This document shows positions 174 through 18,932 of a stretch of 24,219 bases of DNA, one piece after another. This DNA is from a virus. The stretch is from the IMG/VR virus record IMGVR_UViG_3300040801_000600, positions 1-24,219 of that record. One strand, given 5' to 3'. The translations under genes and the position numbers were made by a program. The notes beneath the pieces were generated by a model that was not told the DNA's origin, did not search any database, and saw only the letters and a list, made by a program, of their open reading frames with translations. The first letter of the stretch is position 1. Each line of letters starts with the position of its first letter.

Positions 174-3023
174 TCAAGCATTTATAATACCTTTGGATAA
201 TTGTTTCATTGTATATAATTCATGACTATCAACAGTTCTATTAGTTGTGTTTACATATACATTATGCTCAAGACGTTTTCTTGAATACTCTCTAAGGTTT
301 TCGCGTATATCATTCCATTCTGGAAGGGATTTGGTATATTCTACAATATACTCCATACCAGCTTTATCAAGAGCAAGATATTCATTTGAATCTTTGAATG
401 GTACAACAGCACCTCTAGCTAACTCATCAGCAACAATATTAACCCCATCAGGCTCATCAAATGCCCATACATAGTCTCCAGTAAACTCAGTTGGGGTTTG
501 ATTAAAAGTAATGTCTTGGGTTATTTCATGGTTAAATCCAGAAGAACGGTATAATTGCATTCGACGTTCAACGACAAGGCTTTCTAAAAATCTTCTTCTG
601 TCAGCATATTCGCTATTAGATTTATCCAAACTTCTAATCATTTCAATTATTGAATTTCTATATCTGATGTAAGACTCTATATCTGAACGAATGACATCCA
701 TTCCTCTTTTTCTTCCTCCACCAAAGCCGTCACCAGTAGCACTTTCACCTTCCCACATACGCCATCTTGGAGTGTCTCCACTTCTATTAGGAATTCTTAT
801 GAATCTAGAATTTAATATATCATCTAAAGCTTCTTGATTTATGTTTGATGGAGAGCTTTCAACATTATTTCTTTGTAGTTCACTTAATGTTCTTAGACTC
901 TCTGTTACAAAATCAAAAGAAGCCCCTCTAAATTGATCGCTTGCATTTACTACAGTTGCAGCAGTAAGAGTTAATCCGCTTAATGATGATACAAATTCCC
1001 CATAATTTAATGCTGTTGATTCAATGGTATCTCTGCCAGCCAAAATTCTTCTTCTTGCATTTCTAGTACTTTCAGATATTTGCCTATGGGTTTCTGATAT
1101 GTTACTCATAGTATCTTCTACCATGGTCAGAACATCGGGATCATTTATTCCAGTTTCTGATATTGCACTGAGAGTCATCACTAATTGCTGATTTGCAGCC
1201 ATTCTATCTGATAATATTTCTTCGCTTACATCAGTCTGTCTGCTTGAAATATGTTGCATTCTTGCTTGTATGTCTTCAATATATGCTTCTATCTCTTCTT
1301 GAGTGGCGTCCCTTACTGCTCCACCTCTAATATTTCCAGTAATTAAGTTTTGAGAAGAAATCTTCATATCTGAAGTTATAGCTTCAGTTATATTTTGAAT
1401 TAATTCATCCTGGGTTAATGTAGTAGACGAAGCATAATTGACAGCCATGGCAGCCACCATATCTCTTGTTAATTCTTGTCTATCTGACGACGCCAATCTT
1501 GCCAACCCAGTTGATGCCAATGAACGATTCATAACGTTTGCTTGGATATTACTTGTTCTATCAGAGTTCATATAATTTGATAAAGAACTGACAATCCCAC
1601 CGAATAAGTTCTGGAAAGTTATTCTTGCCCATTCACCTACAAAATTTCCAACAACATCTATTGTTTCAAATCCATCAGCAACGCCAACAATGGCTTTGAA
1701 CAATTTATCAATGGCATTAACAAACCAATTATTTTGTATAAAATGAGATACAGTGTCCATTATTTCTGATGCAGTGTCTAATACACCTTGTATCATTCTA
1801 CTCCCACCACCAGACACATAACTAATAAATTCACTAATCCATGAAAATATATTTGCAGTTGTTTCTTCACCAAATAGTGTAGACATTGACGAATATATGA
1901 AATTATAAAATCCTTCCAATACAGAATCTAAAACTCCACTAAGACCACTGGCGTCAAAAATCCAAGACATAAATGATTTAATTCCATCCCATATCCAGGA
2001 TGTTACATTCTTTAGTAATCCAAATCCCTTTCCAATTAAATCAGCTAAATATCCTCCAGTTTCAATTAATCCGACTATAGCATTTAGGCCAAGTCGAACG
2101 AACATGATAACAAGGGGTATACCAAGGATTAAACTTAATGGACCACCTGTAAGGGTTTTCATTACTAATTTTCCAAGCCACCTAAAGTAGGTTTTGAATC
2201 CAAACCCCAAAATAGATACAGTCTTCTTAATGGCCTTTAAACCAACTTCGAATATAGTCTTTAGACCTTTAGCAATAAAAGATATAGCTTGGAATCCCAC
2301 ATCAATAAACCATTTGATTGGCTTCCATGCTACTGTAGCAACATATTTTATAGCGTTCCATGTGGGACCAATCAATAAACTTGTATATTTCTTAAATAAA
2401 TTCCATGCCCCAATAAATGGTCTAGTAATCCAACTTCCAAGGGTCTTTAGTGCCCCGACACCTTTATCATATAACCACTTTGAAAAATCAATAAATTTGT
2501 CCTTCAAAAATTTTGTACTATTAACCAATTTATCCAAAGCACCCTGAAAATATTTTTCAAAGTCTATACCAGACCCAATCGTAAAACATTTTTTGTTTAA
2601 TGCTTTCTCATTTTCATTTGTTTCGTTTTCAAAATGTTCTGTTATAGATTTGATATTAGCGTTAATTATTTTTTCTGATGAATCTGCTTCATTGTCTGAC
2701 TTTGATACTTCATCTTTAGAGTTTTGAATTATAGAATCATGAAGTCTTTTGGTTGCTTCAGATTCAGTTTTTGATTCATTCTGTAATAAATCACGGTATG
2801 TATCAAATTGTAATGACAATTCTTTCATTAGTTCTATATTTCTCTTTTGATTTTCTGATTCTGAAGAATTGTTTCGTTTTGATAATTCTGTTTTTATTTG
2901 TCGTATTTTTTCTTGTATATCTTTTAGTTTATCAGGTACATTCCCTAGATCTGCTGATACAATATCATCAGTTTTTTTTATATTCACTAATTTATCAAAA
3001 TTATTTTGATCAAATTCACTCAT
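174..3023 (-). CDS. Second giant tape-measure-like tail protein (949 aa), possible paralogue of the neighbouring tape measure
   Basis: A 949-residue protein. Residues 1-145 are charged and helical (coiled-coil-like, rich in Lys, Glu, Ser). Residues 155-430 form a long hydrophobic, Trp/Phe/Gly-rich region with repeated W-x-x-[IL]-K-type units. Residues 470-950 are polar and helix-rich. The same layout is seen in the gene just upstream, and both share a Pro-Leu-Val-Ile step followed by an amphipathic Gly/Leu/Trp stretch, which suggests duplication. Its ATG overlaps the upstream stop (TAATG at 3023), implying translational coupling. Tape-measure proteins set tail length and line the tube lumen; T4 gp29 is 590 residues. 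This one lacks the clear C-terminal GG-x-VGE motif of its neighbour, so it could instead be another lumen or ejected protein. Position makes a tail role likely; exact function is inferred. Confidence 0.6.
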   Translation of the reverse strand: MSEFDQNNFDKLVNIKKTDDIVSADLGNVPDKLKDIQEKIRQIKTELSKRNNSSESENQKRNIELMKELSLQFDTYRDLLQNESKTESEATKRLHDSIIQNSKDEVSKSDNEADSSEKIINANIKSITEHFENETNENEKALNKKCFTIGSGIDFEKYFQGALDKLVNSTKFLKDKFIDFSKWLYDKGVGALKTLGSWITRPFIGAWNLFKKYTSLLIGPTWNAIKYVATVAWKPIKWFIDVGFQAISFIAKGLKTIFEVGLKAIKKTVSILGFGFKTYFRWLGKLVMKTLTGGPLSLILGIPLVIMFVRLGLNAIVGLIETGGYLADLIGKGFGLLKNVTSWIWDGIKSFMSWIFDASGLSGVLDSVLEGFYNFIYSSMSTLFGEETTANIFSWISEFISYVSGGGSRMIQGVLDTASEIMDTVSHFIQNNWFVNAIDKLFKAIVGVADGFETIDVVGNFVGEWARITFQNLFGGIVSSLSNYMNSDRTSNIQANVMNRSLASTGLARLASSDRQELTRDMVAAMAVNYASSTTLTQDELIQNITEAITSDMKISSQNLITGNIRGGAVRDATQEEIEAYIEDIQARMQHISSRQTDVSEEILSDRMAANQQLVMTLSAISETGINDPDVLTMVEDTMSNISETHRQISESTRNARRRILAGRDTIESTALNYGEFVSSLSGLTLTAATVVNASDQFRGASFDFVTESLRTLSELQRNNVESSPSNINQEALDDILNSRFIRIPNRSGDTPRWRMWEGESATGDGFGGGRKRGMDVIRSDIESYIRYRNSIIEMIRSLDKSNSEYADRRRFLESLVVERRMQLYRSSGFNHEITQDITFNQTPTEFTGDYVWAFDEPDGVNIVADELARGAVVPFKDSNEYLALDKAGMEYIVEYTKSLPEWNDIRENLREYSRKRLEHNVYVNTTNRTVDSHELYTMKQLSKGIINA

Positions 3024-6000
3024 TATTCAGCACCTAAAAGTCCCATACTTAAATTCTTGAGGTCATACATAGTGGTATCATTTTCTTCTGGCGTTGATGC
3101 AGCACTTATAACATTTATGATATCTCGACTAACCTCTTCTTTTATCTCTTCTGAAAAAGTATCAGAATCAATTAGCTCATCCATACTATTTATTATAAAC
3201 AACCACCCTTCTTTGTTGATAGGGATAACAACTTCAGAATGTTCCCCTTCACCCACCCATGCCAAGAGTGCATCTTTTATAACACCACCTAAAGCTAATG
3301 CATCAATAGAAGTACCACCAGAATCAGTGAACATTCTTTCTTGGGCAGTTCTTCTTCGAATATTAGCATCTGCTGTCATGTGACGTAACTCAGAACGTAA
3401 ATTTCCAGTTTCCCAAGCGTCAGATTCAAACAACATATCCATCTGTCTCATTATAAATGCGTCACTTAAATTAAATGATCTAGCAGCAAGAACATTTCGA
3501 TGGAAGGATTCATTAAACATTCTCTCTATAGCTTCTGGATTATTTTCATAAGTTAAACCTGAACGTATTGCTGGTATAAAATAATTAAGAAATAAATCTT
3601 TATATGGAGATGCCCCAACATAATCTGGGATGTTCTCGCCATCCTCAATACTTATTGTTGACATATCAAAATTAAATTGCTGATTAAGATTACTCAATTG
3701 GATAAGTAGGTCAGCGACGTTAATTTGGCGAGTTATTCTAGCTCTATCCATAACTCCCATTGCTCTTTGAATCTGCGAATTAAATTCTTCTATTGTTTGG
3801 GCAGTTCGTATTCCTGCTAGAACACTAGTCAATTCTCTTAATGCTTGGGTTTGTTGAGGTATTTCTGAAGACCCGAGTAATTCACGATCTATTTCTTCAG
3901 AAGTCATCCTTGCAAATCTAACCATTCTACCAGTAGTTAGAGGCCAACGGATTCCAGAACTAACGTTTGCAACAGATTCATTCGTATATGAATGCAGTTC
4001 GCCAATCATAGTTTCTATTGCTTCTCTACTTTGTTGGTCAATTGTTTCTAAAGATTCTAACTGTTCATATTGTTCGTTTATGGCAGACTCTAACTCTCTC
4101 GCACGTTCTTCACCTAAACGTCTCAGAGTAGCATTTCCTATACTCATATTAATAAAACGAGTTCTTACTGAATGTCCACCGCCTTCTATACTAAAATCTC
4201 CATAACTTGAAAGTAAACTATCTCGTGTAACAGAAAATCCTCTTGTATCTCCAAGAGATAATGCTCTTTCCATATTATCAATTACTGCTCTAGTTCCTGA
4301 TAAGGCGGCATTAATTCTATTTAGTCTATATCCAATATCTTCTCTTGTATGACCAAATATCTCCATTGCTAATGCACGAACGTTGATTTTGATTTCATCT
4401 TTCATATCAGATCTGAGGGGGTTACCTCCAAATTCAAATGTATTTAAAAATTGTGTAAGGGTTCGATTTCCAACTGAAATTAATTCAGACAGATACTGAG
4501 ATCTATTCTCAGGGTTAGAAAATACATCATTTACCATTTGTAAATAATGTTGTGCCATTTGACGAGTAACTATGTTTAATGCTAGTGAGTGAATTTCAGG
4601 AAGAACTTCATTAAACATAATAATTTCTGTTTGTTCCAATTCTTGTAGTTGAAACTGTAATGTAGATCCTTGAGTATTACCACCAGAGAAGAACGCAAGC
4701 TCAAACTCTCTGGCAGCATCACCACTACTGAAATAATTGAAAAATACTTGAGAAACTTTTAGTATCTTATCTATTTGTATAAATAGTTTTTCTCTTTCTG
4801 CCAGCCCTATAAAACTAAAGACTTTATCCACGAAGTTCCCAAGATGATCTAATCCAGATCTACCTATATCTTCCATTTCTTCTGAAGAAACGCCAAATAG
4901 ACGACCTAGACTTTTATCCCAGAAGTTTGATAATCCACCTTCAGTAATCCATTCCCAAATACCACTGAAAAAGTTACCTATTTCTTGATTTAATTCTGCA
5001 CCATTCTCCATACCTAGCATAGATGCTATACTATCCCAACCAGATGAAATCAAATCAGAAATTAAATTCCAAGCACCAGAGATAATCTTTCCAATTAATT
5101 CTCCAGCACCAGCCAATAACTTTGGACCAAAAGCAACTAATGCTATACCAAGTCCCCAAATAACTAATGGACTTGAAAAGATTTCAAGAAGAGTTTCAAA
5201 TAAAATTTTAGTTATTGCTTTACCAGTCTCAGAAAATGCTTCAAAAATTCCTCTAATAGCTTTCCAGCCAATCGTCGCTAACCCTTTAACAATTTTCCAG
5301 GCTTTGTCAATTATGAATACACCAGCTTGAACTACCCACTTGAAAATCTTCCAACCAAATTTAGCCACCCCAGATAAAGCTTTATAGACTAGTTTTCCTG
5401 GACCACCAAAGAACTTCAAGAAATTTCCAACAGTCTTATCTAGAAATCCCCCAACAGTTTCACCTGCACGATCAAAAGTCTTCATCGTTTTATTGTAGAC
5501 TTCTCCAGTTTGAGAACTAACGATATCAGAAAATTGAGCGAGAGCTTCAGTTTTAATTTCAGACGCAGTTTGCTTTAATTTTCCCCACGTTCTACAAAGA
5601 CCATCAGTGAATATCTTTGTAAATTCTTTTCTTCTTTTGGCGAAATTTTTTAATGTAGGTAATGTTGTAGTGGTGAGACCTTTACCAATATTTTCTAATT
5701 TTTCTTTTGTCTTTCCAAGAGAGTTGGATAGAGTTTCTTTTATTTTAGTGACGCTTTTTTCGTAAGCTTCTGATGCTTTTGCACGTTTATCTGAAATTTC
5801 TTTAAATGAAGATAAAGTCTTTTTAAAAAGTTCTTTTTGTTGTTTCAACTTTTCAGATAATCGTTTATCTTTTTCTTTTTGTTCATTTGTTATATTTTCG
5901 TTAGTAGATTTTGGTTTCCCTATATTAAGATCATCTACTAAAATGTAAACATCAGATTCTAATTTCGAAATAGTTAGCTTTATTTCTGCTAATTCATCAT

Positions 6001-6106
6001 CAGTAAGTGTTGGAGTTTGAGGTTGGGAATTTTGACGAAGCTGCTCTTCCATTCGTTTAAGCTGCTCTATTCTCATACGTTCTTTTAATTCGTCATAATC
6101 CGCCAT
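3023..6106 (-). CDS. Tail tape measure protein (about 1,027 aa)
   Basis: The protein has a charged coiled-coil N-terminus (roughly residues 5-150), a hydrophobic Trp/Gly-rich central region (about 220-400) and a long helical C-terminal half. Near the end, at about residues 940-962, is a GGVI...WVGEGEHSEVVIPI stretch. This matches the GG-[IV]...[LW]VGE-x-[GE]-x-E-[AV][VI]IP motif that recurs near the C-terminus of many phage tape-measure proteins. It follows the gp26-like gene and its small overlapping partner, the usual place of a tape measure after tail-assembly chaperones. The open frame begins with GTG at 6118, but the ATG at 6106 is preferred because GGAAGG lies just ahead of it and nothing suitable precedes the GTG. 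The start overlaps the end of the upstream small gene. Longer than T4 gp29 (590 aa). Confidence 0.75.
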   Translation of the reverse strand: MADYDELKERMRIEQLKRMEEQLRQNSQPQTPTLTDDELAEIKLTISKLESDVYILVDDLNIGKPKSTNENITNEQKEKDKRLSEKLKQQKELFKKTLSSFKEISDKRAKASEAYEKSVTKIKETLSNSLGKTKEKLENIGKGLTTTTLPTLKNFAKRRKEFTKIFTDGLCRTWGKLKQTASEIKTEALAQFSDIVSSQTGEVYNKTMKTFDRAGETVGGFLDKTVGNFLKFFGGPGKLVYKALSGVAKFGWKIFKWVVQAGVFIIDKAWKIVKGLATIGWKAIRGIFEAFSETGKAITKILFETLLEIFSSPLVIWGLGIALVAFGPKLLAGAGELIGKIISGAWNLISDLISSGWDSIASMLGMENGAELNQEIGNFFSGIWEWITEGGLSNFWDKSLGRLFGVSSEEMEDIGRSGLDHLGNFVDKVFSFIGLAEREKLFIQIDKILKVSQVFFNYFSSGDAAREFELAFFSGGNTQGSTLQFQLQELEQTEIIMFNEVLPEIHSLALNIVTRQMAQHYLQMVNDVFSNPENRSQYLSELISVGNRTLTQFLNTFEFGGNPLRSDMKDEIKINVRALAMEIFGHTREDIGYRLNRINAALSGTRAVIDNMERALSLGDTRGFSVTRDSLLSSYGDFSIEGGGHSVRTRFINMSIGNATLRRLGEERARELESAINEQYEQLESLETIDQQSREAIETMIGELHSYTNESVANVSSGIRWPLTTGRMVRFARMTSEEIDRELLGSSEIPQQTQALRELTSVLAGIRTAQTIEEFNSQIQRAMGVMDRARITRQINVADLLIQLSNLNQQFNFDMSTISIEDGENIPDYVGASPYKDLFLNYFIPAIRSGLTYENNPEAIERMFNESFHRNVLAARSFNLSDAFIMRQMDMLFESDAWETGNLRSELRHMTADANIRRRTAQERMFTDSGGTSIDALALGGVIKDALLAWVGEGEHSEVVIPINKEGWLFIINSMDELIDSDTFSEEIKEEVSRDIINVISAASTPEENDTTMYDLKNLSMGLLGAE

Positions 6107-6353
6107 TTTGCCTTCCACCAGTTATTGCTTTAATTATAGAATTAACTGCTTTTTGAGCGAATTGCATTACACTCTTTACAAATTCTTTTTTACCTTCCTG
6201 CTTTTCAGTATAGACTTTCTTAAAATTATATATAAAGAAATGTAACTCATCCATAGACATATTTTCAATGTCTGAATGAGTTACGCCACCCTCAGAAAAT
6301 ATAATTAATTCTATAGCATCACTAAGCAACTTAGAGAAATGCTCAGGAGCCAT
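6093..6353 (-). CDS. Small tail-assembly protein, possible frameshift partner of the gp26-like gene (gp51/GT-like)
   Basis: An 86-residue basic/amphipathic protein whose ATG overlaps the stop of the gp26-like gene (TAATG, 6351-6355) and whose end overlaps the start of the tape measure gene. A central DELHFFIYNFKKVY segment is followed by a Lys-rich helix. A short second chaperone frame squeezed between a tail-assembly protein and the tape measure is the lambda G/GT arrangement; in T4 the nearest analogues are gp26 and gp51. The frame is -1 relative to the upstream gene and open back to a run of seven T at 6368-6362. It could therefore be made as a fusion by slippage, by its own ATG, or both. 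No strong Shine-Dalgarno precedes its ATG, which favours coupling or frameshifting. Family assignment rests on position. Confidence 0.6.
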   Translation of the reverse strand: MAPEHFSKLLSDAIELIIFSEGGVTHSDIENMSMDELHFFIYNFKKVYTEKQEGKKEFVKSVMQFAQKAVNSIIKAITGGRQNGGL

Positions 6354-7909: not shown

Positions 7910-9916
7910 TCAGAGTCGCTCAACAACTTCATTAAATTCGACGCCAGTTCCAACAGCAGTGAATGTAAGTTTAATAAACTCAGCAACACGAGTTGGTTTG
8001 ACAAGAATTTCTGCTCTGAATTCATTTCTGTCGATGACTTCTGGAGTATTATTCGTTTCGTCACAGACAACTAAGTAGTCGAACACACCTCTTCTAGCCT
8101 TGACTTCAGACAAGAATGGGTTGACAGTTCCACGGAATCTAGATCTAGTGAAATCGTCATTGAATTCGAAGAGATAGAATCTTGCGAATCTCTTGATAGT
8201 TTTCTCCAAGTACAAGAACAAGCGACGAACGTTGATTCTATCGAATGCTGATGCTTTGGATTGTAGAGTCTTCTGACCCCAGATAACAATACCTTCGCCC
8301 ACAAAATCAACGATTGGGTTGATTCTGTTGTAGTAAAGAATATCTCTCTGACCCTTGTTTGGGTTAACAGCGACATCAACAACGTTGCTGATGATACCTC
8401 TGTTAAGACCTGCTGGTGCCCACCACTGAGCAGCACTAAAGTCAGTGAATGCCATAACAGCAGAAACATATCCAGAAGCTGGAACCCAACGTTCTTTCTC
8501 TGCAAATCTGTCGTAAATCTTGAAGTAGTTACCATAGATTGCTGAGTATGAAGAGTTGATGTTGAGATCATTCTGAACGTATCTCTTCATAGATTGATAT
8601 GGGCTTGATACTGGCTTGTTGTTAGTGACATTAAGAATTCTGTCTTTTCTAACATTCAAGACAGCAAAGCAGTCTTTACGAATTTCCTTACAGATTTGGT
8701 CAAGATAACGCTTGATGTTATCAACATAGTCTGGGTCGATAAGCAAGTCAATTTCGATTTCTTCAGGGTTAGTGAAGTATTCCTGCCATGCTTTGAGAAT
8801 CTCACCAGTAAGATCACCAAGACCAGAACCTGGAAGTTCACCAGTTAGCTTATCAAATCCATTTGCTACATCATAATCAGTGAATCCTAAGAAAGTTCTG
8901 CGAGTAGTGACCATTGGAACACCAGAAGCAGAAGTCTCATTATTACCAATGTAGAAGTAGATAAGATCGTTGTTACCATTAACTTGGTCAGGACCAAACA
9001 TTCTGTTGCCCTGCTCATCTCTCTTACCTTTCTGGTTGGAGAATACCCACTGGTTGACAGGGTCACCAAATTCGTTGAAGACGATCAAGATTGCTTCGTC
9101 AGACTCATCTGGTCCAAATTCGAATGCAACAAGAGTTGCTAAGAATGATTCATCAATGTCCCAATCAGTTGATGGAGCAGTTGGTGGGAAAATAACATCA
9201 TACTTAATGAGAGAATTTGAAAGAAGCTCTTCTGCTGGTGATGCAGTAGTTGCAGGAACACCATTGTAGTAACGAGATGCGATTGAATCGATTTCATCCT
9301 GAGTTACAGCTTCTACAAGTTCATCACGAAGTTCAACAAGAGTTGCCCAGTCGGCAGCATTAACGACAACAACAGATACACCTTCATAGACAGAACCAGG
9401 ACCAACTGCATAGAAGTGGTATGATTCGTCATCAAGTAGATTGTTTGCTGCATTGTCTAATGCCAGTGGATTGGATGCTGGGAGATCTGGGTCAAGAGAG
9501 TAGTCTTTCTTTGCTTCATGTTCTTTAATATCACCATAGTCAAGTGGGAAAGATTCTACTTTCTTAGAAGTATTTTCAAGAATAACAACATCGCCAGATG
9601 CAGCAGTAGTTCCAGTTGAAGAAACACCGACTGTAAGTCCTGGAACTGCTTTAGTGTCATCTTCAGTTCTTACAAGCCACAACTGGTCAGACTGTTTCGA
9701 AAAAGCTTCAGCAGTAAACCAGTGGGTGAAGTTGACATCGCTTGGTCGTCCAAATTTGGATTCCAAGTCATTTGGATTAGTAACGAGAACTCTTTGATTT
9801 ACAGGTCCTTTTTCTGCTGCAATTACCATTGCACCAACAGATGATGTAACAGAAGGGACGATCTGTGTAAAATCTCTTTCTCGGATTTCTACGTTTGGCG
9901 AAAGATTGTTTGGCAT
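7910..9916 (-). CDS. 18: Contractile tail sheath protein gp18
   Basis: A 668-residue protein close to the T4 length (659). The N-terminus MPNNLSPNVEIRERD...TSSVGAMVIAAEKGP is the conserved opening of T4-type sheaths (SPGVE-like start, then VGAIV...GP). Residues from about 40 carry VLVTNPNDLESKFGRPS, another sheath motif. The C-terminal third holds the conserved core: WVPASGYVSAVMAFTD, WWAPAGLNRG (PAG loop), RDILYYNRINPIVDF, IVIWGQKTLQ, INVRRLFLYLEKTIKR and a final polar helix/strand. These build the contractile hexameric sheath around gp19. An exact late-promoter box and AAGGAG precede the ATG at 9916. Like gp19, its GC content looks somewhat higher than that of its neighbours, as is common for highly expressed structural genes. 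Confidence 0.96.
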   Translation of the reverse strand: MPNNLSPNVEIRERDFTQIVPSVTSSVGAMVIAAEKGPVNQRVLVTNPNDLESKFGRPSDVNFTHWFTAEAFSKQSDQLWLVRTEDDTKAVPGLTVGVSSTGTTAASGDVVILENTSKKVESFPLDYGDIKEHEAKKDYSLDPDLPASNPLALDNAANNLLDDESYHFYAVGPGSVYEGVSVVVVNAADWATLVELRDELVEAVTQDEIDSIASRYYNGVPATTASPAEELLSNSLIKYDVIFPPTAPSTDWDIDESFLATLVAFEFGPDESDEAILIVFNEFGDPVNQWVFSNQKGKRDEQGNRMFGPDQVNGNNDLIYFYIGNNETSASGVPMVTTRRTFLGFTDYDVANGFDKLTGELPGSGLGDLTGEILKAWQEYFTNPEEIEIDLLIDPDYVDNIKRYLDQICKEIRKDCFAVLNVRKDRILNVTNNKPVSSPYQSMKRYVQNDLNINSSYSAIYGNYFKIYDRFAEKERWVPASGYVSAVMAFTDFSAAQWWAPAGLNRGIISNVVDVAVNPNKGQRDILYYNRINPIVDFVGEGIVIWGQKTLQSKASAFDRINVRRLFLYLEKTIKRFARFYLFEFNDDFTRSRFRGTVNPFLSEVKARRGVFDYLVVCDETNNTPEVIDRNEFRAEILVKPTRVAEFIKLTFTAVGTGVEFNEVVERL

Positions 9917-9935
9917 CGCTTAGACTCCTTGAATC

Positions 9936-9978
9936 AGTCAGATCAATTTATACATCATTATTTATAACCAATCTGACT
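9936..9978 (-). repeat. Inverted repeat enclosing the gp18 promoter boxes
   Basis: AGTCAGAT at 9936-9943 and ATCTGACT at 9971-9978 (plus strand) are perfect 8-base arms. The 27-base interior holds the TATAAATA box and a second near-box (TATAAATT), which can pair partly with each other. No long T-run follows, so it does not look like an intrinsic terminator. Confidence 0.5.
9959..9966 (-). promoter_or_regulatory. T4-type late promoter (TATAAATA) before gp18
   Basis: Exact TATAAATA on the minus strand about 43 bases ahead of the gp18 ATG. A second near-match (TATAAATT) follows about ten bases later. The position fits gp55/gp33-dependent late transcription of T4-like phages. Confidence 0.7.
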
Positions 9979-10007
9979 TGTGTTTCCTAACTTAATTAAA
10001 GATTAGT

Positions 10008-12236
10008 TCATCTGCGACCATTACGAAAATTTAGATATTCTTCATATCCACCAAATTCGTTAATTTTGCTCTGAAAATCTCTAACTTCACTATCTAATAA
10101 CCATCCATCTGGATCGTGTGCTTCAGCGTCAGCCGCTAAAAATGCATCCCAAGCTTCTTCCATTTCAGGATCTCCTTCAGCTTCTTGAAGAGGAGTTTCT
10201 TGAGGATTTGTTTTATTCATTCGATACCAGAGTTCAGGATCATTTTGTAACATATCTTTTTCTTGCCATTCATATTTTTCACCTTCAAAGAAATCCGAGT
10301 GTAAGAAATATGAGAACCATATACAAGACATGACACAATCATCATATAAATTTTTACCTTCTTTACCTTTAAATACACCCTCACGCACTTCTTCAAAATA
10401 TCCAATTTCATCAATCGTTTGGTCATCATTTAAGATAATATGTCCACCTTCAAGATCAGCTTTGAAGTGTTGACATGCTTTTGGTTTGGTTGAGCGAGTT
10501 GCTAGAACTCCATATTCTCCTCGTTGAACATCAAAGAATAGATTTTCATATTCATAGTCATTAAACATACTAGCACATACATCATCTCCATAACCACCAG
10601 GATTTACTTCGATAATAACATATGCATCATTCCAATATTTAGCACTATTATAGATATATTCTGCCATCTGAGTTGGAGGTAGGGTATTACAACGCCAAAT
10701 TGCTACTTGTTCATGAGCCATACCTGCCAATGCACCAGTTACATCGAATACATTAATAATAGAAAAGTCTGACCCTACTCCACCACCAACATCGACAGAA
10801 ATCGCATATTTATGTCCAGGTTTGGATTGTGCCCACATTTTAGTCCATTCGTCTGGCATCCAAAGTGGTTCTTTTTTATTTAAATGTTTAATGATATATT
10901 CTGCTTCAATGAGAGTAATAGATGATCCTTGGAATTGACAGTTATGAGTTTTTATACCGTTTGCATAAAAAGAATGTTCATCATTATCTACTTCTAATAC
11001 ATCATAAACGTATTCTTTTCCTTTATATTCGATAGAAACGATCTTCTCAGGACCATCAATAGTATCTATAATATCCCCCACTTGTAGGTCTTTCATTTGG
11101 ATAGTTTTATCACCACTGAAAATTTCATGGTCAAATGTTGTGGTAATGGTCTTATCACAGTTAGTTGTTAAACATATACCTGCTTTTTTCACATCAGATT
11201 TTTTTAAACCCTCGAACTCTACCCATCCATTTTCAGTTTCTATTTCATAGTCTTCAAATGCAGCAATAACAAAAGTTTCCATATATGTTTTAAATCTATC
11301 TGATTTTAAATATTCATCTTCATTCATGCTGTTTTTTGATGAATTTATTTTACCATGAACTATTGCCAGATTTGATGGTGATCCGATTTCTTCTGGCGAC
11401 GCCTTACGTTTAAATCCATTACTTATAGATTCCCTATGATCAATTGAAATATGTTCTGGGAATTTATATAAAGGAAATCCAGTATATTCGCAATATCCGC
11501 TCCATAATTCAAAAACCTCATTTAATGATTGTAATGTTTCTCTTTTAACATCCAGATAATATTTTTTTATTTCTGGCATTTTAGATCTTGGTTGCCACTT
11601 ACCAGCATCTTCCATATTTTTGCGGATCGCATCTTTTATCTCTTTCAAGCAACTGGTTGCAGGAACTCCATATACATTCATATTGGTATTTCTTCGTTTT
11701 ACATTCGCAGAAGTTTTCTTCTCATCAGTCCACGATTTCCTACGTTTCTCATTGATTTCTTCTTTATTCTCTTCTAATGCCTTGACTCTTAAATTAGTGG
11801 TTTCTTCTGTTAATAAATTGGTTTTAACGCCAAAATTCTTCAAATTGGTGTGGGCAACTTTATTTTTAGTATCAACTAACTGAGGAACGTGCTCTTTACC
11901 ATACTTCTTTAAATTGGTAGTTTTTCTTTTTGATAAAGCTTTTTCTTTATCGTATGAATTTACACTTCTTTTATGATTTACTATGTACTCAGGATCTTTA
12001 TGAGAACATTTAACTGAACAAGTTCTTGCATATCCTTTTTGGTGGAATTTTGTAGGTTTACCACAAACTACACATATACCTTCACCATCTTTCTTTTCAG
12101 TTAAATCATAATACTCTTTTTTACTAGTTATACCATGATCAGGTCCACAATGGTATCTGAGAAAATGTGAAGGTCTATACTTGGTCTGGGAATTACAGAT
12201 TTTACAAAACACAGGTAGTTCTTTACACCTTTTCAC
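10008..12236 (-). CDS. 17: Terminase large subunit gp17, C-terminal piece: HNH endonuclease + C-intein + nuclease domain
   Basis: A 742-residue precursor. Residues 8-82 hold two Zn-binding clusters (C11-x2-C14...H24-x4-H29; C55-x2-C58...C73-x3-C77). Residues 105-195 have repeated TNLKKYG-like motifs, and 245-310 an HNH-type site (D266-H267, N289, H294, N298). Residues about 325-432 are a C-intein: block-B-like TTTFDH (365-370), then D-L-Q-V-G-D and the ending SFYANGIKTHN before Cys433. From Cys433 the gp17 nuclease domain follows, with likely catalytic D482, E543 and D632/D633. The start is GTG at 12236 with GGAGG nine to ten bases upstream; a stop lies in frame at 12255-12257. It overlaps the N-terminal piece by 14 bases in another frame. 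Trans-splicing would release the endonuclease-intein and complete gp17. Confidence 0.9.
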   Translation of the reverse strand: MKRCKELPVFCKICNSQTKYRPSHFLRYHCGPDHGITSKKEYYDLTEKKDGEGICVVCGKPTKFHQKGYARTCSVKCSHKDPEYIVNHKRSVNSYDKEKALSKRKTTNLKKYGKEHVPQLVDTKNKVAHTNLKNFGVKTNLLTEETTNLRVKALEENKEEINEKRRKSWTDEKKTSANVKRRNTNMNVYGVPATSCLKEIKDAIRKNMEDAGKWQPRSKMPEIKKYYLDVKRETLQSLNEVFELWSGYCEYTGFPLYKFPEHISIDHRESISNGFKRKASPEEIGSPSNLAIVHGKINSSKNSMNEDEYLKSDRFKTYMETFVIAAFEDYEIETENGWVEFEGLKKSDVKKAGICLTTNCDKTITTTFDHEIFSGDKTIQMKDLQVGDIIDTIDGPEKIVSIEYKGKEYVYDVLEVDNDEHSFYANGIKTHNCQFQGSSITLIEAEYIIKHLNKKEPLWMPDEWTKMWAQSKPGHKYAISVDVGGGVGSDFSIINVFDVTGALAGMAHEQVAIWRCNTLPPTQMAEYIYNSAKYWNDAYVIIEVNPGGYGDDVCASMFNDYEYENLFFDVQRGEYGVLATRSTKPKACQHFKADLEGGHIILNDDQTIDEIGYFEEVREGVFKGKEGKNLYDDCVMSCIWFSYFLHSDFFEGEKYEWQEKDMLQNDPELWYRMNKTNPQETPLQEAEGDPEMEEAWDAFLAADAEAHDPDGWLLDSEVRDFQSKINEFGGYEEYLNFRNGRR
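10941..11264 (-). other. C-intein segment (about 108 residues)
   Basis: Residues about 325-432 of the C-terminal piece. The opening YEIETENGWVEFEGLKKS aligns in pattern with the start of the AceL-TerL C-intein (IKI-x3-NGF-x-x-F-x-GI-x-K). TTTFDH supplies the block-B T-x-x-H, and IKTHN-Cys the block-G ending. The N-terminal boundary is approximate. Confidence 0.85.
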
Positions 12237-13110
12237 TATATAAGTCCTCCAAAGTTACTGATCGTACTTCTCCAGTTACTTTATGTCTTATATTTATAAC
12301 AGTATCAGGCCAAAAACAGTTGAATTCCTGATTAAAACGAATATTCCCTAACATCTGACGCATTTCTTTTTCCCAAGATTCATCTCGACCTGGAACTTGT
12401 CTCCAATCAACTTTATATGGGACAAATGGGAAGTCGGCTGAATCATTAGATGCATCTTTCCAAAGATTGTAAAATAAGTTACCAGTACCATTTGGAGTAG
12501 AAACCACGATACATTTACCACCAGTAGAGATAACTGGCAAGTTTGATGCCCAGAACTCGTCTGCCAAGTTATTTGGAACGAATGCGAACTCGTCTAGGAA
12601 GATCAATGCAGCAGATTCACCACGAAGAGCATCTTTAGAAGTTGCACGAGCAAGAATCTTACACCCATTATCAAATTCTACAGTTCCTTTGTTATATTCG
12701 ATGACTCCAGGTTTAAGATATTCTGGTAATCGTTCATAAGCGAATTTAATTTCATCAAGAATTGCAACAGCAGTTGATGCTTTGTTAGCAAGAATTGCAA
12801 CAGTTTTATCTTTTTGGAAACATGCGAACCATAAAAGATAGATAGCTGAACATGTGGTTTTACCAACCTGTCTAGCTGCCATTAAAATATTTAATCGGTG
12901 ATCTTGGAAATTACTAAGAATACCTTCTTGATAATCTCTAAGAGAAATAAGCTGGGCACCAGTGACCTGGTGAACTACATAATAGAAGTTTTCAGCAAAG
13001 AATTTTACATCTTGAATGCACTGGGCATAGTTTGCCAACATAGCTGCATCAAACTGGATTTTCTTTCCTGGACGCTTAATACGACCGTCATCATCATATT
13101 TAATAGGCAT
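12223..13110 (-). CDS. 17: Terminase large subunit gp17, N-terminal piece: ATPase domain + N-intein
   Basis: A 295-residue protein from the ATG at 13110, preceded by TTGGAG with nine bases spacing; the TTG at 13125 is part of that Shine-Dalgarno and is not the likely start. Residues 1-264 are the packaging ATPase: Walker A AARQVGKTT (78-86), Walker B ALIFLDEF with D173-E174, and the coupling motif VVSTPNGTGN (202-211). Residues 265-295 are an N-intein starting with Cys265 and containing block-A-like DTVINI and a closing VTLEDLYSEK. The frame ends with TAA at 12225-12223, inside the Shine-Dalgarno/start zone of the next piece. After splicing, 264 N-extein plus 310 C-extein residues give 574, near the T4 length of 610. 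The motor packages DNA into the prohead through the portal. Confidence 0.93.
   Translation of the reverse strand: MPIKYDDDGRIKRPGKKIQFDAAMLANYAQCIQDVKFFAENFYYVVHQVTGAQLISLRDYQEGILSNFQDHRLNILMAARQVGKTTCSAIYLLWFACFQKDKTVAILANKASTAVAILDEIKFAYERLPEYLKPGVIEYNKGTVEFDNGCKILARATSKDALRGESAALIFLDEFAFVPNNLADEFWASNLPVISTGGKCIVVSTPNGTGNLFYNLWKDASNDSADFPFVPYKVDWRQVPGRDESWEKEMRQMLGNIRFNQEFNCFWPDTVINIRHKVTGEVRSVTLEDLYSEKV
12246..12250 (-). promoter_or_regulatory. Shine-Dalgarno GGAGG for the C-terminal gp17 piece
   Basis: GGAGG lies on the minus strand inside N-intein codons (TTG GAG GAC), nine to ten bases before the GTG at 12236. It decides the start of the second piece and argues that the split is genuine. 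Confidence 0.8.
12291..12298 (-). promoter_or_regulatory. Late-promoter-like box TATAAATA inside the N-intein
   Basis: Exact TATAAATA overlapping the Ile-Asn-Ile codons of the N-intein, about 55 bases ahead of the GTG of the C-terminal piece. A transcript starting about six bases after it would carry the GGAGG and GTG. By eye, the other exact minus-strand copies lie just ahead of gene starts. Confidence 0.5.
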
Positions 13111-13119
13111 GCTGTAAAT

Positions 13120-13147
13120 CTCCAAAAATATTTATACATTTTTGGAG
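13120..13147 (-). promoter_or_regulatory. Hairpin that overlaps the gp17 Shine-Dalgarno and encloses the late promoter
   Basis: Perfect 10-base arms CTCCAAAAAT and ATTTTTGGAG (13120-13129 and 13138-13147) with an 8-base loop. On the minus strand the downstream arm contains the gp17 GGAG, so an RNA reading through from upstream genes could hide it. An RNA starting from the TATAAATA inside the hairpin would lack the upstream arm. T4 genes e, soc and 49 use this logic. Confidence 0.6.
13129..13136 (-). promoter_or_regulatory. T4-type late promoter (TATAAATA) before gp17
   Basis: Exact consensus about 18 bases before the gp17 ATG, within the loop and arms of the 13120-13147 hairpin. The predicted start would fall at or next to the GGAG, giving a very short leader. 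Confidence 0.65.
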
Positions 13148-13150
13148 GAT

Positions 13151-14056
13151 TTATGGACGAAAAATTTTAGAGAAGTCCCCGTTTCTATATTCTGCTTTAA
13201 TAAAATGCCACTTCCATAAATCTCTGAGAGTAGGTTCTTCATATCTTCTACCCCCCAATGCATTTGGACTAGGATTGACATATATCTTAGGGACCAAAAA
13301 TCTATTCTCAAATTCTATCATAAAACTATTGATACCAATATCATTTTTAAAGTTTTTCTGTTTTTGTGGAGGATATAATTCAGTATCAATCTTTACTTCA
13401 ATTGGATTCAAGAAATTTTTTCCAGATCTAGCATCTTCCCATAACCATTGAAATAGACTTCCAAAATCTCCAGCAGAAGATGTCATTACTAACTGACTCC
13501 AGTACATATCTTTCAACAAGAAGCCATTTTGTATATGAGTCTGTAAATTCTTATGGTTGACATATTGAGTTTCATCAGACCATAAAAGATCAAAACGAAA
13601 TCCTCTAAACCCATCAAATGAACCAAATGAAATGCCATAGATATGAACATCATTATCAGCCTTTATGCATTTAGAGTTTGATGTAAGCAATCCTGGTTTG
13701 ATCCACTCTGGCAATTGTTGATATTTTTCTTGTATTTCTTTTATGAGTCTTATGCTTTGTGCATGGGAATCTGTAACAATACCTATAGACTTATACTGGT
13801 TAAAACAAAGATACCATAAAATCAAACCTTCCATGATAGTCGTTTTACCATGTTGTCTTGGTGATAGTACAATAGTGTCGTTTCCATTGATAACAGACTC
13901 AAGTATTTCTTTATGGTAACCTTTGACGCTATATTTTCCAACTCCAGTTACTGGAGAGATTATGTCCATATACTGTTCTAGAAAATATATAGGATCACGA
14001 ACACATTTGACAATCTCAGAATATTGTTCAGGAGTTCTTTCAGTCGTCGTGATCAT
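13151..14056 (-). CDS. Free-standing terminase ATPase-domain protein (gp17 paralogue lacking the nuclease)
   Basis: A 301-residue protein between gp16 and gp17. It aligns by eye along the whole gp17 ATPase domain: Walker A VLSPRQHGKTT (63-73) against ILMAARQVGKTT; LPEWIKPGLL against LPEYLKPGVI; Walker B DLLWSDE (156-162) against LIFLDE; and MTSSAGDFGSLFQWLWEDA (191-209) against VVSTPNGTGNLFYNLWKDA. It passes the position of the gp17 intein (IEFENRF against QEFNC, the Cys replaced) and ends about 48 residues later with no nuclease domain. Both Walker motifs are intact, so ATP hydrolysis is plausible; motif III has lost the STP. Its ATG overlaps the end of gp16 with a GGAGG/AGAGG region upstream. 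It may be a second packaging ATPase, a regulator, or a relic of duplication. Confidence 0.85.
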   Translation of the reverse strand: MITTTERTPEQYSEIVKCVRDPIYFLEQYMDIISPVTGVGKYSVKGYHKEILESVINGNDTIVLSPRQHGKTTIMEGLILWYLCFNQYKSIGIVTDSHAQSIRLIKEIQEKYQQLPEWIKPGLLTSNSKCIKADNDVHIYGISFGSFDGFRGFRFDLLWSDETQYVNHKNLQTHIQNGFLLKDMYWSQLVMTSSAGDFGSLFQWLWEDARSGKNFLNPIEVKIDTELYPPQKQKNFKNDIGINSFMIEFENRFLVPKIYVNPSPNALGGRRYEEPTLRDLWKWHFIKAEYRNGDFSKIFRP

Positions 14057-14648
14057 CCTCTACCTTTCCTCCATCGATTTCAACTGATGCGTCTTTCATG
14101 TTTGGAGAAGACCCAGGAAGAATTCCTTTAGAAGCTAGCATATCTAGAACAGAATTAGTATCTCCAACCATGAGAATATTAGTGTCACCCTTTCCACCAT
14201 GTTCAATGGCACGACTTTGAATTGTTGATTTTTTGAGGTCTAGTTTTTCTTGCTCAATTGCAAGTTTTGTATTATAAACTTTTACTTTGTTGAAGTTATC
14301 AACAATTCCATTGATAGCTGAAAGCATGGCAGCAGCAGTTTCAACGCCTCGACCAGTAGGATTGTCTTCAATCTCTAATTGCAATGCTGTTATCATAGTC
14401 ATACCCTTTTCGACAAGACTCTTCAGCACGCTTTTAGTAAAATCATCATCATCCATTTCTTTGATCTTTTTGAACTCTTCTTTCATTTCAGTAACAGCTT
14501 TTCTAGTGTTTTCTAGTTTATTTTCTAGCTCATTTGCTGCTTCATCATCAAAAGATAAGTTATCATCACCATCAATATTCAATATCTGTTCAATAGATTT
14601 GAATGACTTTGATTTCTTTTTCTTATCTTCTTCGTTATCGTCGCTCAT
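14040..14648 (-). CDS. 16: Terminase small subunit gp16
   Basis: A 202-residue acidic, mostly helical protein located between gp15 and the terminase ATPases, the T4 position of gp16 (164 aa). Residues 35-75 form a heptad-rich helix (ENKLENTRKAVTEMKEEFKK). Residues 85-150 contain MITALQLEIEDNPTGRGVETAAAMLSAING and a following long helix, matching the central oligomerisation core of T4-like small terminases (E-[LI]-x-x-NP-x3-R-x-[FV]-E-x-[LA]). The C-terminus is low complexity and acidic. gp16 forms rings that recognise DNA and stimulate gp17 ATPase and nuclease activity. The ATG overlaps the gp15 stop (TAATG), so translation is probably coupled. Confidence 0.8.
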   Translation of the reverse strand: MSDDNEEDKKKKSKSFKSIEQILNIDGDDNLSFDDEAANELENKLENTRKAVTEMKEEFKKIKEMDDDDFTKSVLKSLVEKGMTMITALQLEIEDNPTGRGVETAAAMLSAINGIVDNFNKVKVYNTKLAIEQEKLDLKKSTIQSRAIEHGGKGDTNILMVGDTNSVLDMLASKGILPGSSPNMKDASVEIDGGKVEDDHDD

Positions 14649-15958
14649 TATTCATCACCTAAATGGTCTAAGTCTTCTGGTATATCTTGAGGTTTATCAT
14701 CAATACTGTCTTGTACATCTGGATACTGTTCTTCATTTACTAAGAATATCAAATCATTTCCATTCTCGTCTTTAGCAGTATCTCCATTTTGTTCAACAAT
14801 TCTCTTAAAATACCATACGTTTATTATACCAGCCTGACCAAAAGTTCTCGTCCCATCAGGGTTGAGGGGTGGAAGGTCATCTTCTATAAATCCATCAATC
14901 TTGTCATCAGGAATATTAAATGGACCAGTAATCGTTTTTTGGAAATACCAATCAATCAATCCACTATCTTCATTATGATAGATAAATGGTTTTCTTATTG
15001 GAGGATCACACTTAGTATATCCAGAATTTTCATCCCAAACAGGTCGAGGCGGATCATCTTCTAGACAATTGCTTGTAATACAACTAACATAATCTGTTGG
15101 GTTCATGTTGTTATTAGCATAACGCCAATACTTAACCATCAGATCATACCCATCCATACCATCAAGACGTTCAAGAGCACAAGAGATATCACGATCTTCT
15201 AAACAGAATGGTTCTTCTGTTGTGATATCATTAACGATGATCTTTTCACCTTGGAATGGTCTTCTACGACATGGAACTTCAGCGATTGAAATAATAGAAC
15301 AAAGAATCTCTTTCTTAATTTCCATTGGTTTATATACATGAGTTTCCATGGTAAAGTTCATGACAGTTTGGAGGACTCGTCTGTCACCTTCACCCAATTC
15401 AAATACATTATTAATAGAAATGTTGTCGAGAGTTACTTTGGATTTTCTTTCAATACCAAAGTTTCTTTCTTTGATGGAGAGATGGTCTTGTGGAGCAAAC
15501 CATGGCAAAATATTTTCCATGATCTGTTTCATATCAATATCATACTTCGTCCAAATAATAACTTCAAAAGAAAGATTATATGGAATTGGTTTCAAGTCCA
15601 CTTGCATTTCTCTTCTTTGTGGTCGTCCAAATTCATCAGTTTGTTCATTATCGTAGTATTCAATATTCAACAAACGATTTTCAAACTTACCACGCATACG
15701 TCCAGAGTCCCAAGTAATTCCAGTCATATTAACTGAAATTCTTGGAAGGTAATTATCAACCTGAACGTCAACATCATTTACATCAGATTTTAAGAGAATG
15801 GATGCAATCTTTTCTTTTGGAGCCAAAGTCATAACAACAGGCTTCACCCCAACGATGCGACCATCTTTGTCATAGACACGAGTAGTCATATCATTAAATT
15901 GATCTGAAAACGCAACAATTGACGTATATAATGACTTTGGATAGAAGTATGCTTTCAT
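14648..15958 (-). CDS. 15: Tail sheath stabiliser / tail terminator gp15, with long C-terminal extension
   Basis: A 436-residue protein. Residues 1-215 carry the gp15 core: MKAYFYPKSLY, a central VDLKPIPYNLSFEVIIWTKY strand pair, IDMKQIMENILPWFAPQ (142-157), and a final NFTMETHVYKP strand. In T4 (272 aa) gp15 caps the completed tail and binds gp3, the sheath and the neck. Residues 220-436 are an addition with seven Cys (220, 230, 252, 260, 293, 298, 317), many Pro and Asp, and two similar WYF units, DWYFQKTI (336-343) and VWYFKRIV (381-388), each followed by a D/G-rich loop. The extension may decorate the neck or tail-tube junction. AGGAG precedes the start; the 18-base gap to the acidic gene upstream has no promoter box. 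Confidence 0.85.
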   Translation of the reverse strand: MKAYFYPKSLYTSIVAFSDQFNDMTTRVYDKDGRIVGVKPVVMTLAPKEKIASILLKSDVNDVDVQVDNYLPRISVNMTGITWDSGRMRGKFENRLLNIEYYDNEQTDEFGRPQRREMQVDLKPIPYNLSFEVIIWTKYDIDMKQIMENILPWFAPQDHLSIKERNFGIERKSKVTLDNISINNVFELGEGDRRVLQTVMNFTMETHVYKPMEIKKEILCSIISIAEVPCRRRPFQGEKIIVNDITTEEPFCLEDRDISCALERLDGMDGYDLMVKYWRYANNNMNPTDYVSCITSNCLEDDPPRPVWDENSGYTKCDPPIRKPFIYHNEDSGLIDWYFQKTITGPFNIPDDKIDGFIEDDLPPLNPDGTRTFGQAGIINVWYFKRIVEQNGDTAKDENGNDLIFLVNEEQYPDVQDSIDDKPQDIPEDLDHLGDE

Positions 15959-17861: not shown

Positions 17862-18932
17862 TTATGCTGTGCCAGATAACATATTGACAATCATAGATTT
17901 TAGTGACTTTGATAAATTTCCAAGATTCTCAGTTGCGTAAGCTATTGCTTCTGCCCAAAGTTCTTCAGGATTCGTAGCAGCATATTCACTAGGGGTTGAA
18001 CCTTTTTCGAACGCCAATGAACGAAGAGTTTGGAATTCATCTTTTTCTAATTTTGATGGAACTGACTGTAAACCTGTTTTAAAACTGAGTTTAGATAGAA
18101 CCTTTTTAAAACTTTCTTTATCTTTTAGAATATTTGGATTTCTTTTGAATGCTGAAGTAAATGTTTTCCCTAAATAAGATTTAACCGAAGTAGATGGTTT
18201 AATTGCTGTAACTTGCATTACAATTTCTGGGAGTACACGATCCAATTTTCTTCTTAATGGGGATGTATCAGACTGTGAAGCATGCCAAATTTCTTCTGCT
18301 TGTGTTGACGTTATAGAATCAGATTGATTCTCTTTGTGTCCATAATAACTTTTAAATGATGGGGAAACCACATTGTCTTTATACCACGAAACAAATTTTT
18401 CTTTTGTTTCTTTATCGAATTGTTTGTACCAAACACTATGAGCGAATTCATGAGTAACAGTATATTTAAATCTTTCTATATCCCCAAAAAATAATCCTTT
18501 ATTAACGAATATAGTTCCAGTTCTTGGATCTGCATATCCATAAATGTCTTTGTCTCCAACCTCTTTAATTAAAGCTTCTGCATTTTTTGGAAATTCAATA
18601 AGAACTAAACTTTGTTTTTGACTTCGAATCCCAAGCTTCCCAATATTATTAGATACTTCTTTGAGAATAGAATCTAATTTTTGTATTCTATTTTTTGTTA
18701 ATAATGGGTCTTTCAGAGGGCCACTGTCTTCTAAAGAATAGAATTTATTTTCGTGTTTTCTTTCTTTATCCAATACTCCAGAATATGGAATAAAAAATCC
18801 CATTTTTGGAAGTCGAGTCAATTGATTAGACTCAATCCATTTTTCTCCAGTCTTCGGGTTAGCCCCACGAAATTCCATCAGTTCGTCATATTGATGGTCT
18901 TTGTTGAAATAACTTTTGAAGTCTATATTCAT
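17862..18932 (-). CDS. Putative zinc metallopeptidase (HExxH) inserted between gp13 and gp14
   Basis: A 356-residue protein with HEFAH at 161-165 (two His zinc ligands, catalytic Glu162) at the end of a helix (RFKYTVTHEFAHSVWYKQF). A later NPEELWAEAIAY helix (321-332) can supply the third, Glu ligand (E324 or E328), the gluzincin pattern. Residues 125-150 form a strand-rich lead-in (YGYADPRTGTIFVNKGLFF), the expected edge strand before the active-site helix. N-terminal 1-100 is basic with no signal peptide or membrane segment, so a cytoplasmic or virion location is likely. Its ATG is three bases after the gp13 stop, making it part of the gp13 transcript. It may process neck or head proteins, act as an injected effector, or be an unrelated insertion. 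T4 has no counterpart between genes 13 and 14. Confidence 0.75.
   Translation of the reverse strand: MNIDFKSYFNKDHQYDELMEFRGANPKTGEKWIESNQLTRLPKMGFFIPYSGVLDKERKHENKFYSLEDSGPLKDPLLTKNRIQKLDSILKEVSNNIGKLGIRSQKQSLVLIEFPKNAEALIKEVGDKDIYGYADPRTGTIFVNKGLFFGDIERFKYTVTHEFAHSVWYKQFDKETKEKFVSWYKDNVVSPSFKSYYGHKENQSDSITSTQAEEIWHASQSDTSPLRRKLDRVLPEIVMQVTAIKPSTSVKSYLGKTFTSAFKRNPNILKDKESFKKVLSKLSFKTGLQSVPSKLEKDEFQTLRSLAFEKGSTPSEYAATNPEELWAEAIAYATENLGNLSKSLKSMIVNMLSGTA

What the first reader, a model, noticed from the sequence alone, without database searches (positions are those of the whole stretch)
10941..12318. gp17 is made as two proteins by a split intein whose C-half precursor carries an HNH endonuclease at its front
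Seen: one frame ends in N-extein + 31-residue N-intein; an overlapping GTG-started frame begins with Zn clusters, TNLxKYG repeats and an HNH site, then a C-intein ending THN-Cys and the gp17 nuclease domain. The exteins join at the conserved EFN-C of gp17 without loss. Known: short-N-fragment TerL split inteins (AceL-TerL) and fractured genes with a separate nuclease between intein halves. Inference: here the endonuclease is fused to the C-intein, so splicing would free a 432-residue endonuclease-intein. This could be an intermediate between a contiguous homing intein and a fully fractured gene.
Basis: partly seen in the sequence, partly recalled or inferred. Interest (0 to 1): 0.92.

Follow-up and report, generated by a model that had tools for sequence, protein, structure and literature searches.

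The report
DNA-cutter fused onto split-intein terminase half
A phage makes its DNA-packaging motor as two proteins that a split intein should join, and a homing-type DNA-cutting enzyme is fused to the front of the second intein half; this is a rare, recurring variant of a known arrangement and bears on how mobile inteins gain, lose and tolerate their endonucleases.

Summary
On the minus strand, a gp17/TerL ATPase ORF ends in a 31-residue N-intein. It overlaps by 14 nt a GTG ORF with a GGAGG ribosome site. That ORF runs without a stop through an HNH endonuclease, a 107-residue C-intein ending THN|Cys, and the gp17 nuclease domain. The C-intein profile matches the CatC atypical split intein (E=7e-24), and its AlphaFold model (pLDDT 96) matches inteins. 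The joined exteins (264+310=574 aa) align without a gap to intein-less homologues. The HNH part is 38-40% identical to freestanding HNH genes between TerL split-intein halves of other phages.

It is not unique. A Vsr-like nuclease is fused the same way in Vibrio phage Va1 and four IMG/VR lineages; in a mirror form the nuclease is fused to the N-intein. In a pattern-selected, dereplicated sample the nuclease was freestanding (64), fused to IntC (5 plus the window) or fused to IntN (5), never inside an unbroken intein at this position.

Splicing and homing are inferred, not shown. The 'intermediate' idea is plausible (the closest TerL relative has an unbroken mini-intein at the same site) but unproven. 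New variant of a known kind.

The parts
12319..13110 (-). gp17/TerL N-extein (ATPase domain, 264 aa)
   Evidence: Terminase_6N E=3.7e-25; 74% identical over 180 aa to TerL of L108/L249
12226..12318 (-). N-intein, 31 aa, CFWPDT...TLEDLYSEKV (block A Cys1 and block N2), stop codon at 12223-12225
   Evidence: length within GOS-TerL 37 / Cat 30 / AceL-TerL 25 (PMC11766414)
12246..12250 (-). Shine-Dalgarno-like GGAGG, 9 nt before the GTG, inside the IntN coding sequence
10011..12236 (-). fused ORF (GTG start, 742 aa): HNH endonuclease + C-intein + gp17 nuclease domain; +1 frame relative to the N-half, 14-nt overlap
12006..12206 (-). Cys clusters (CKIC, CVVC, C..C) at the nuclease N-terminus
   Evidence: first residues align with starts of freestanding homologues in L032 and L170
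11667..11918 (-). TNLKKYG / TNLKNFG / TNMNVYG repeats (DUF7487 / phrog_3339 homing endonuclease region)
   Evidence: phrog_3339 E=1.3e-13; DUF7487 E=1.8e-5 in P0003, just below cut-off; the L032 homologue passes it, E=3e-15
11334..11444 (-). HNH motif (I265-D266-H267 ... N289-L290 ... N298..K301)
   Evidence: these residues invariant in 4 homologues; AF2 model pLDDT about 80-90 in residues 210-290, top 16 PDB matches are HNH/Cas9-HNH/restriction nucleases, best E=7.5e-3
11277..11279 (-). internal ATG (Met320), about where freestanding IntC ORFs start; no Shine-Dalgarno-like sequence
10941..11261 (-). C-intein, 107 aa (block B TTFDH, block F VYDVLEV, block G GIKTHN)
   Evidence: profile A3 vs PDB: CatC 6dsl_B E=6.9e-24; AF2 pLDDT 95.9; Foldseek gp41-1, VidaL, Cat; TIGR01443 above cut-off
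10011..10940 (-). gp17/TerL C-extein (RNase H-like nuclease domain, 310 aa) starting Cys+1
   Evidence: phrog_24361 terminase E=6e-11; Terminase_6C E=2.2e-4, just below cut-off

Best explanation
gp17 (TerL) is encoded in two overlapping ORFs that form an atypical, N-proximally split intein. The upstream ORF makes the ATPase domain plus a 31-aa IntN. Ribosomes then start at the GTG (strong Shine-Dalgarno, probably coupled to termination of the first ORF) and make one polypeptide: HNH homing-type endonuclease, C-intein, gp17 nuclease domain. The two intein pieces associate and trans-splice (Cys1, block B His, penultimate His, terminal Asn, Cys+1). This yields a 574-aa gp17 joined at FNQEFN|CQFQGSS, a free 31-aa IntN, and a 432-aa HNH-IntC protein. 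The endonuclease, before or after release, most likely cuts intein-less terL alleles in co-infecting phages so that the whole cassette is copied in (homing). Because the nuclease shares a reading frame with an essential gp17 domain, frameshifts and nonsense mutations in it would also destroy the terminase, which should protect the nuclease from decay. Shown: sequence anatomy, fold assignments, seamless extein join, recurrence in relatives. Inferred: translation coupling, splicing, nuclease activity, homing, and the selective advantage.
For: ORF anatomy, overlap and Shine-Dalgarno. Intein C-terminal family above cut-off. CatC E=6.9e-24. Invariant block B His and HN in 35 IntCs. Intein fold by AF2 and Foldseek. 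HNH homology and motif. Freestanding HNH homologues in the same slot in L032/L169/L171 and L170. Intein-less homologues align across the junction without a gap. The same two-ORF fused layout occurs in Va1 (MK387337.2), L131-L133, L283, L290 and L308. In all six fused lineages the second ORF overlaps the end of IntN in the +1 frame.
Against: No expression, splicing or cleavage data. Block A departs from consensus (CFWPDT where most of the family has CxxGDT), so splicing efficiency is uncertain. Only one contig carries the HNH version of the fusion, and read support could not be checked. The HNH model is of low overall confidence (pTM 0.36). The nuclease's target is unknown.
Confidence: 0.82

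Rival explanations
1. A sequencing or assembly frameshift has cut one continuous ORF; in reality this is a contiguous intein with an HNH domain inserted after residue about 31.
For: Single contig; the +1 relation needs only one indel.
Against: The GTG has a well-spaced GGAGG. The HNH N-terminus coincides with the starts of freestanding homologues. IntN stops at the length typical of split TerL inteins. The same overlapping layout occurs in isolate Va1, in three contigs of one lineage (L131-L133), and in L283, L290 and L308. No contiguous ORF with a nuclease at this position was seen among 141 dereplicated IntCs.
Confidence: 0.06
2. A programmed +1 ribosomal frameshift in the short overlap makes a single-chain IntN-HNH-IntC precursor, in place of or besides two proteins.
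For: All six fused lineages have the second ORF in the +1 frame.
Against: The second frame is open only a few codons upstream of its start, apart from Va1 and L290, and each start lies inside the overlap, as for coupled re-initiation. No recognisable slippery or structural signal was identified, though none was searched for systematically.
Confidence: 0.06
3. The C-half used for gp17 is mostly translated from the internal ATG (Met320); the HNH part is an upstream ORF that has merely lost its stop codon.
For: Met320 sits about where freestanding IntC ORFs start: in L170 the IntC ATG overlaps the HNH stop (ATGA).
Against: No Shine-Dalgarno-like sequence precedes Met320, whereas L032's IntC start has GAGGAG. 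The strong signal is at the GTG.
Confidence: 0.15
4. The HNH protein serves DNA packaging (as HNH proteins near some terminases do), not homing.
For: It is physically tied to TerL; HNH packaging proteins are known (Kala et al. 2014, seen only in the reference list of PMC10448857).
Against: It falls in a homing-endonuclease PHROG. The slot is filled interchangeably by HNH, GIY-YIG and Vsr-like nucleases or by nothing. The closest TerL relative has no nuclease at this site.
Confidence: 0.07
5. The terL copy is decaying and non-functional.
For: A second TerL-like ATPase ORF lies directly upstream (13151-14056).
Against: Intein and gp17 motifs are intact across 742 codons; the upstream paralogue lacks a nuclease domain; related phages with the same layout keep gp17C conserved.
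Confidence: 0.04

Closest known systems
Vibrio phage Va1 terL (MK387337.2, genes Va1_137/Va1_136, annotated only as terminase)
   Same: Same insertion site; IntN ORF overlapping (29 nt) an ORF of about 375 aa of nuclease, then IntC, then the gp17 nuclease domain
   Different: The nuclease is a Vsr/DUF559-like enzyme, not HNH
AceL-TerL / GOS-TerL / Cat atypical TerL split inteins
   Same: TerL host gene, short IntN (25-37 aa) and long IntC (104-115 aa), Cys/HN/Cys+1 chemistry; CatC is the best PDB profile match
   Different: Characterised members are used as bare IntN/IntC pairs; I found no described member with an endonuclease fused to IntC
Fractured genes (Dassa et al. 2009): split intein with a freestanding endonuclease gene between the halves
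   Same: Broken host gene, split intein, homing-type nuclease located in the break
   Different: Here the nuclease is in the same ORF as IntC (paper not held; definition from memory and from citing papers)
TerL locus of L032 and L170 (IMG/VR)
   Same: 38-40% identical HNH in the same slot of a TerL split intein
   Different: HNH has its own stop; IntC is a separate ORF overlapping it by a few nt
TerL of L108/L249 (331.8-kb phage contig), closest host-gene relative
   Same: gp17N 74% and gp17C 62% identical; intein at the identical site
   Different: Contiguous 138-aa mini-intein with no nuclease there; a separate split intein with a freestanding Vsr-like nuclease at the Walker A site

Membership tests
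Atypical TerL split intein (AceL/GOS/Cat type) | Intein in two ORFs with short IntN (about 25-37 aa) and long IntC | tested here: met
   IntN 31 aa; IntC about 107 aa
Atypical TerL split intein (AceL/GOS/Cat type) | Hint-fold C-part homologous to Cat | tested here: met
   CatC 6dsl_B E=6.9e-24; AF2 and Foldseek
Atypical TerL split intein (AceL/GOS/Cat type) | Catalytic residues: Cys1, block B TxxH, block F Asp, HN, Cys+1 | tested here: met
   CFWPDT; TFDH; VYDVLEV; THN|C; block B His, H and N invariant in 35 IntCs. Block A Gly is replaced by Pro
Atypical TerL split intein (AceL/GOS/Cat type) | Trans-splicing activity | not testable with these tools
   needs protein expression
Fractured gene (Dassa 2009 sense) | Host gene broken at a split intein | tested here: met
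   alignment to intein-less homologues
Fractured gene (Dassa 2009 sense) | Endonuclease is a freestanding ORF between intein halves | tested here: not met
   No stop codon between HNH and IntC in 742 codons
Phage HNH homing endonuclease (phrog_3339 / DUF7487 type) | Family profile and HNH catalytic residues | tested here: met
   phrog_3339 E=1.3e-13; D266-H267, N289, N298, K301 invariant; DUF7487 slightly below cut-off
Phage HNH homing endonuclease (phrog_3339 / DUF7487 type) | Site-specific cleavage and homing | not testable with these tools
   no biochemical data
Contiguous homing intein with HEN at the canonical (C35) site | Nuclease between block B and block F in one chain | tested here: not met
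   Nuclease lies before block B, at the split after block N2; the chain is broken

The most novel reading that the evidence does not exclude
The loop after block N2 of TerL inteins is a second docking point for homing endonucleases, different from the canonical C35 site, but it accepts a nuclease only while the intein chain stays broken there. The nuclease may be free, fused to IntC (as here) or fused to IntN, but never has both ends joined. Fused forms such as this one would then be the steps by which inteins move between contiguous mini-intein and fractured gene.
Probability: 0.4. Interest if true: 0.78.

Novelty: new variant of a known kind. Interest (0 to 1): 0.63.

Why it matters
A published puzzle is why endonuclease domains inside inteins all sit at one conserved site; Beyer et al. 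2019 (PMC6801210) proposed that insertions at the symmetry-related N-side site would clash with the exteins, and noted that inteins with nucleases elsewhere should exist if invasion were random. This window and its relatives are natural cases of nucleases of two unrelated folds attached at an N-proximal site, always with at least one break. That makes the steric idea directly testable, and offers living examples of possible steps between contiguous inteins and fractured genes. It would also tie a selfish nuclease's reading frame to an essential phage gene, and supplies natural IntC fusions of interest for protein trans-splicing tools.

Tried and rejected
(1) Single-protein pattern scans for the window's fused protein or HNH domain in IMG/VR found no close relative; the family was reached with junction patterns and small alignments instead. 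(2) Group I/II intron explanation: no Rfam match in 9900-14700. (3) Idea that conserved block N2 codons (EELY) pre-encode a ribosome site plus +1 start: 9 of 84 inteins against about 4.3 expected; too weak to claim. (4) C-intein tree: fused rows do not cluster; window pairs with contiguous L108 and Va1 with contiguous L075, SH-aLRT 86 each; few columns, so only suggestive. (5) AF2 of the two window intein fragments together was not possible within the tool rules; IntC and HNH were modelled apart. (6) A joint alignment of HNH and IntC rows misaligned some nuclease rows and was not used. (7) Pattern hits L092, L153 and L167 turned out to be intein-less TerLs (EHNCSFTGS); L092 and L153 were reused as empty-site controls. 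(8) Dassa et al. 2009 could not be read, so prior description of fused forms cannot be fully excluded.
Full report
Observation. On the minus strand of the window, the TerL (gp17) ATPase ORF (13110-12223) ends in a 31-residue N-intein, CFWPDTVINIRHKVTGEVRSVTLEDLYSEKV, then TAA. A GTG ORF (12236-10008, 742 aa) overlaps it by 14 nt in the +1 frame. GGAGG stands 9 nt before the GTG, inside the IntN codons. The ORF reads: Cys clusters, TNLxKYG-type repeats, an HNH motif, a C-intein ending GIKTHN, then CQFQGSSITLI and the gp17 nuclease domain.

Is it an intein? TIGR01443 exceeds its curated cut-off on the C-part. A profile of 35 homologous IntCs, in which block B His, the penultimate His and Asn are invariant, finds the engineered consensus atypical intein CatC as best PDB match, E=6.9e-24, followed by gp41-1 and VidaL. 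The AlphaFold2 model of the window's IntC has pLDDT 95.9, and its best Foldseek matches are inteins. Known TerL split inteins have IntN/IntC of 25/104 (AceL), 37/115 (GOS) and 30/104 (Cat) residues (PMC11766414); the window has 31/107. Exteins join at FNQEFN|CQFQGSS. Intein-less TerLs in IMG/VR (L153, L092) align to the joined 574-aa protein with no gap at the junction.

What is the fused nuclease? It matches phrog_3339 'homing endonuclease' (E=1.3e-13) and, just below cut-off, DUF7487. Two freestanding homologues, L032 (37-38% identity over the whole length, 174 bits) and L170 (40%), lie in the same slot, between the halves of a TerL intein split at the same site. I265-D266-H267, N289-L290, N298 and K301 are invariant. 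The AF2 model is weak overall (pLDDT 69.8), but its top 16 PDB matches are HNH or restriction nucleases. In L170 the HNH stop and the IntC start overlap as ATGA; in L032 they overlap too. In the window the stop is simply absent, and an internal Met (320), with no ribosome site, sits about where a separate IntC would start.

How widespread is the arrangement? Junction-pattern and nuclease-profile scans of IMG/VR, plus phage records, gave 141 dereplicated IntCs at this TerL site. 64 have a freestanding ORF of at least 120 aa between the halves; examples include GIY-YIG, HNH_3 and Vsr/DUF559-like nucleases. 22 are split with no such ORF, 8 are contiguous mini-inteins, and for 37 the N-half was not in the fetched piece. 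Five lineages have a Vsr-like nuclease fused to the front of IntC: Vibrio phage Va1 (isolate, MK387337.2), L131-L133, L283, L290 and L308. The window adds the only HNH case found. Five more are the mirror image: TerL-N, IntN and Vsr nuclease in one ORF, with IntC as the next, overlapping ORF (L264, L269, L271, L272, L274). No contiguous ORF carried a nuclease at this N-proximal position. The sample is pattern-selected, classification is automatic (at least one row, L130, is misfiled), and the IntC profile would miss very divergent cases such as L142, a contiguous intein that looks LAGLIDADG-like by eye; so these are not population frequencies.

Evolution. In a gp17C tree the window is sister to L249 (same contig as L108; contiguous mini-intein at the same site; 99 SH-aLRT), with two intein-less TerLs next. 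The fused-Vsr group falls in one TerL clade, with contiguous L075 nested beside Va1 (94). The IntC tree pairs the same two couples, weakly (86 each). Intein identity is only 35-37% in both pairs, against 62-74% for the exteins, so inteins at this site change fast or are replaced. The HNH and Vsr fusions are independent, since the nucleases are unrelated families. Fused forms thus lie next to contiguous mini-inteins, compatible with one-step gain or loss of a nuclease, but the direction cannot be read from these data.

Mechanism. Most likely: coupled translation of the second ORF, trans-splicing to 574-aa gp17, release of a 432-aa HNH-IntC, and homing of the cassette into intein-less terL. Sequence anatomy, fold and the seamless junction are shown; the biochemical steps are inferred. 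In all six fused lineages the second start lies inside the IntN codons in the +1 frame (overlaps 8 to about 50 nt), which argues against a sequencing error and for a real gene layout.

Comparison with the literature. Split TerL inteins and fractured genes with freestanding nucleases are known; a split PolB intein with a separate HNH gene is described in phage MIJ3 (PMC6892783). I found no paper in the searchable library describing a nuclease fused to IntC or to IntN of a split intein. The founding paper on fractured genes was not available. Beyer et al. 2019 state that all HEN domains within inteins lie at one conserved site and explain this by steric conflict at the symmetric N-side site. The present set is consistent with that idea if breaks relieve the conflict. 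Whether the split after residue 31 equals their N35 loop was not tested.

Verdict. Real, well anatomised, a new variant of a known kind. Interest is moderate to high for the family-level pattern it uncovers rather than for uniqueness.

Noticed in passing
L264, L269, L271, L272, L274, L275 (ORF L269:3387-5774 + and the like): Mirror topology: TerL N-half, IntN and a Vsr-like nuclease in one ORF, followed by an overlapping separate IntC-gp17C ORF.
   Followed up: partly
13151-14056 (-): A second TerL-like ATPase-only ORF (301 aa, Terminase_6N E=8.5e-8, Walker A SPRQHGKTT) directly upstream of the split terL; relatives are full TerLs at 27-33% identity. No nuclease domain. Function unknown.
   Followed up: partly
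L249 (G001, 331.8-kb contig) 938-4733: Closest terL relative has two inteins: a split one at Walker A with a freestanding 390-aa Vsr-like nuclease, and a contiguous 138-aa mini-intein at the window's site.
   Followed up: yes
L032 7361-10858: TerL broken twice by split inteins (Walker A and C-site), giving three extein pieces and a freestanding HNH gene.
   Followed up: partly
L322 1090-6960: Several nuclease-like ORFs in a row (HNH-like, GIY-YIG-like, Vsr-like by eye) between pieces of a fractured terL.
   Followed up: no
L283 1250-1430: N-extein of a fused-Vsr terL shows an extra ATGA break in the ATPase-linker region without an obvious intein; second fission or sequencing error.
   Followed up: no
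L170 1964-3097: C-intein ends NVNC instead of HNC: penultimate His replaced by Val in a TerL split intein with a freestanding HNH.
   Followed up: no
20263-23033: Cluster of glycosyltransferase-like genes, one (20927-22375) with a glycosyltransferase domain followed by a weak sulfotransferase match, next to tail-region genes.
   Followed up: no
17862-18932 (-): 356-aa ORF with an HEFAH zinc-metalloprotease-like motif and no Pfam match.
   Followed up: no
174-6118 (-): Two large adjacent ORFs (949 and 1031 aa) without any Pfam match, possibly tape-measure-like.
   Followed up: no
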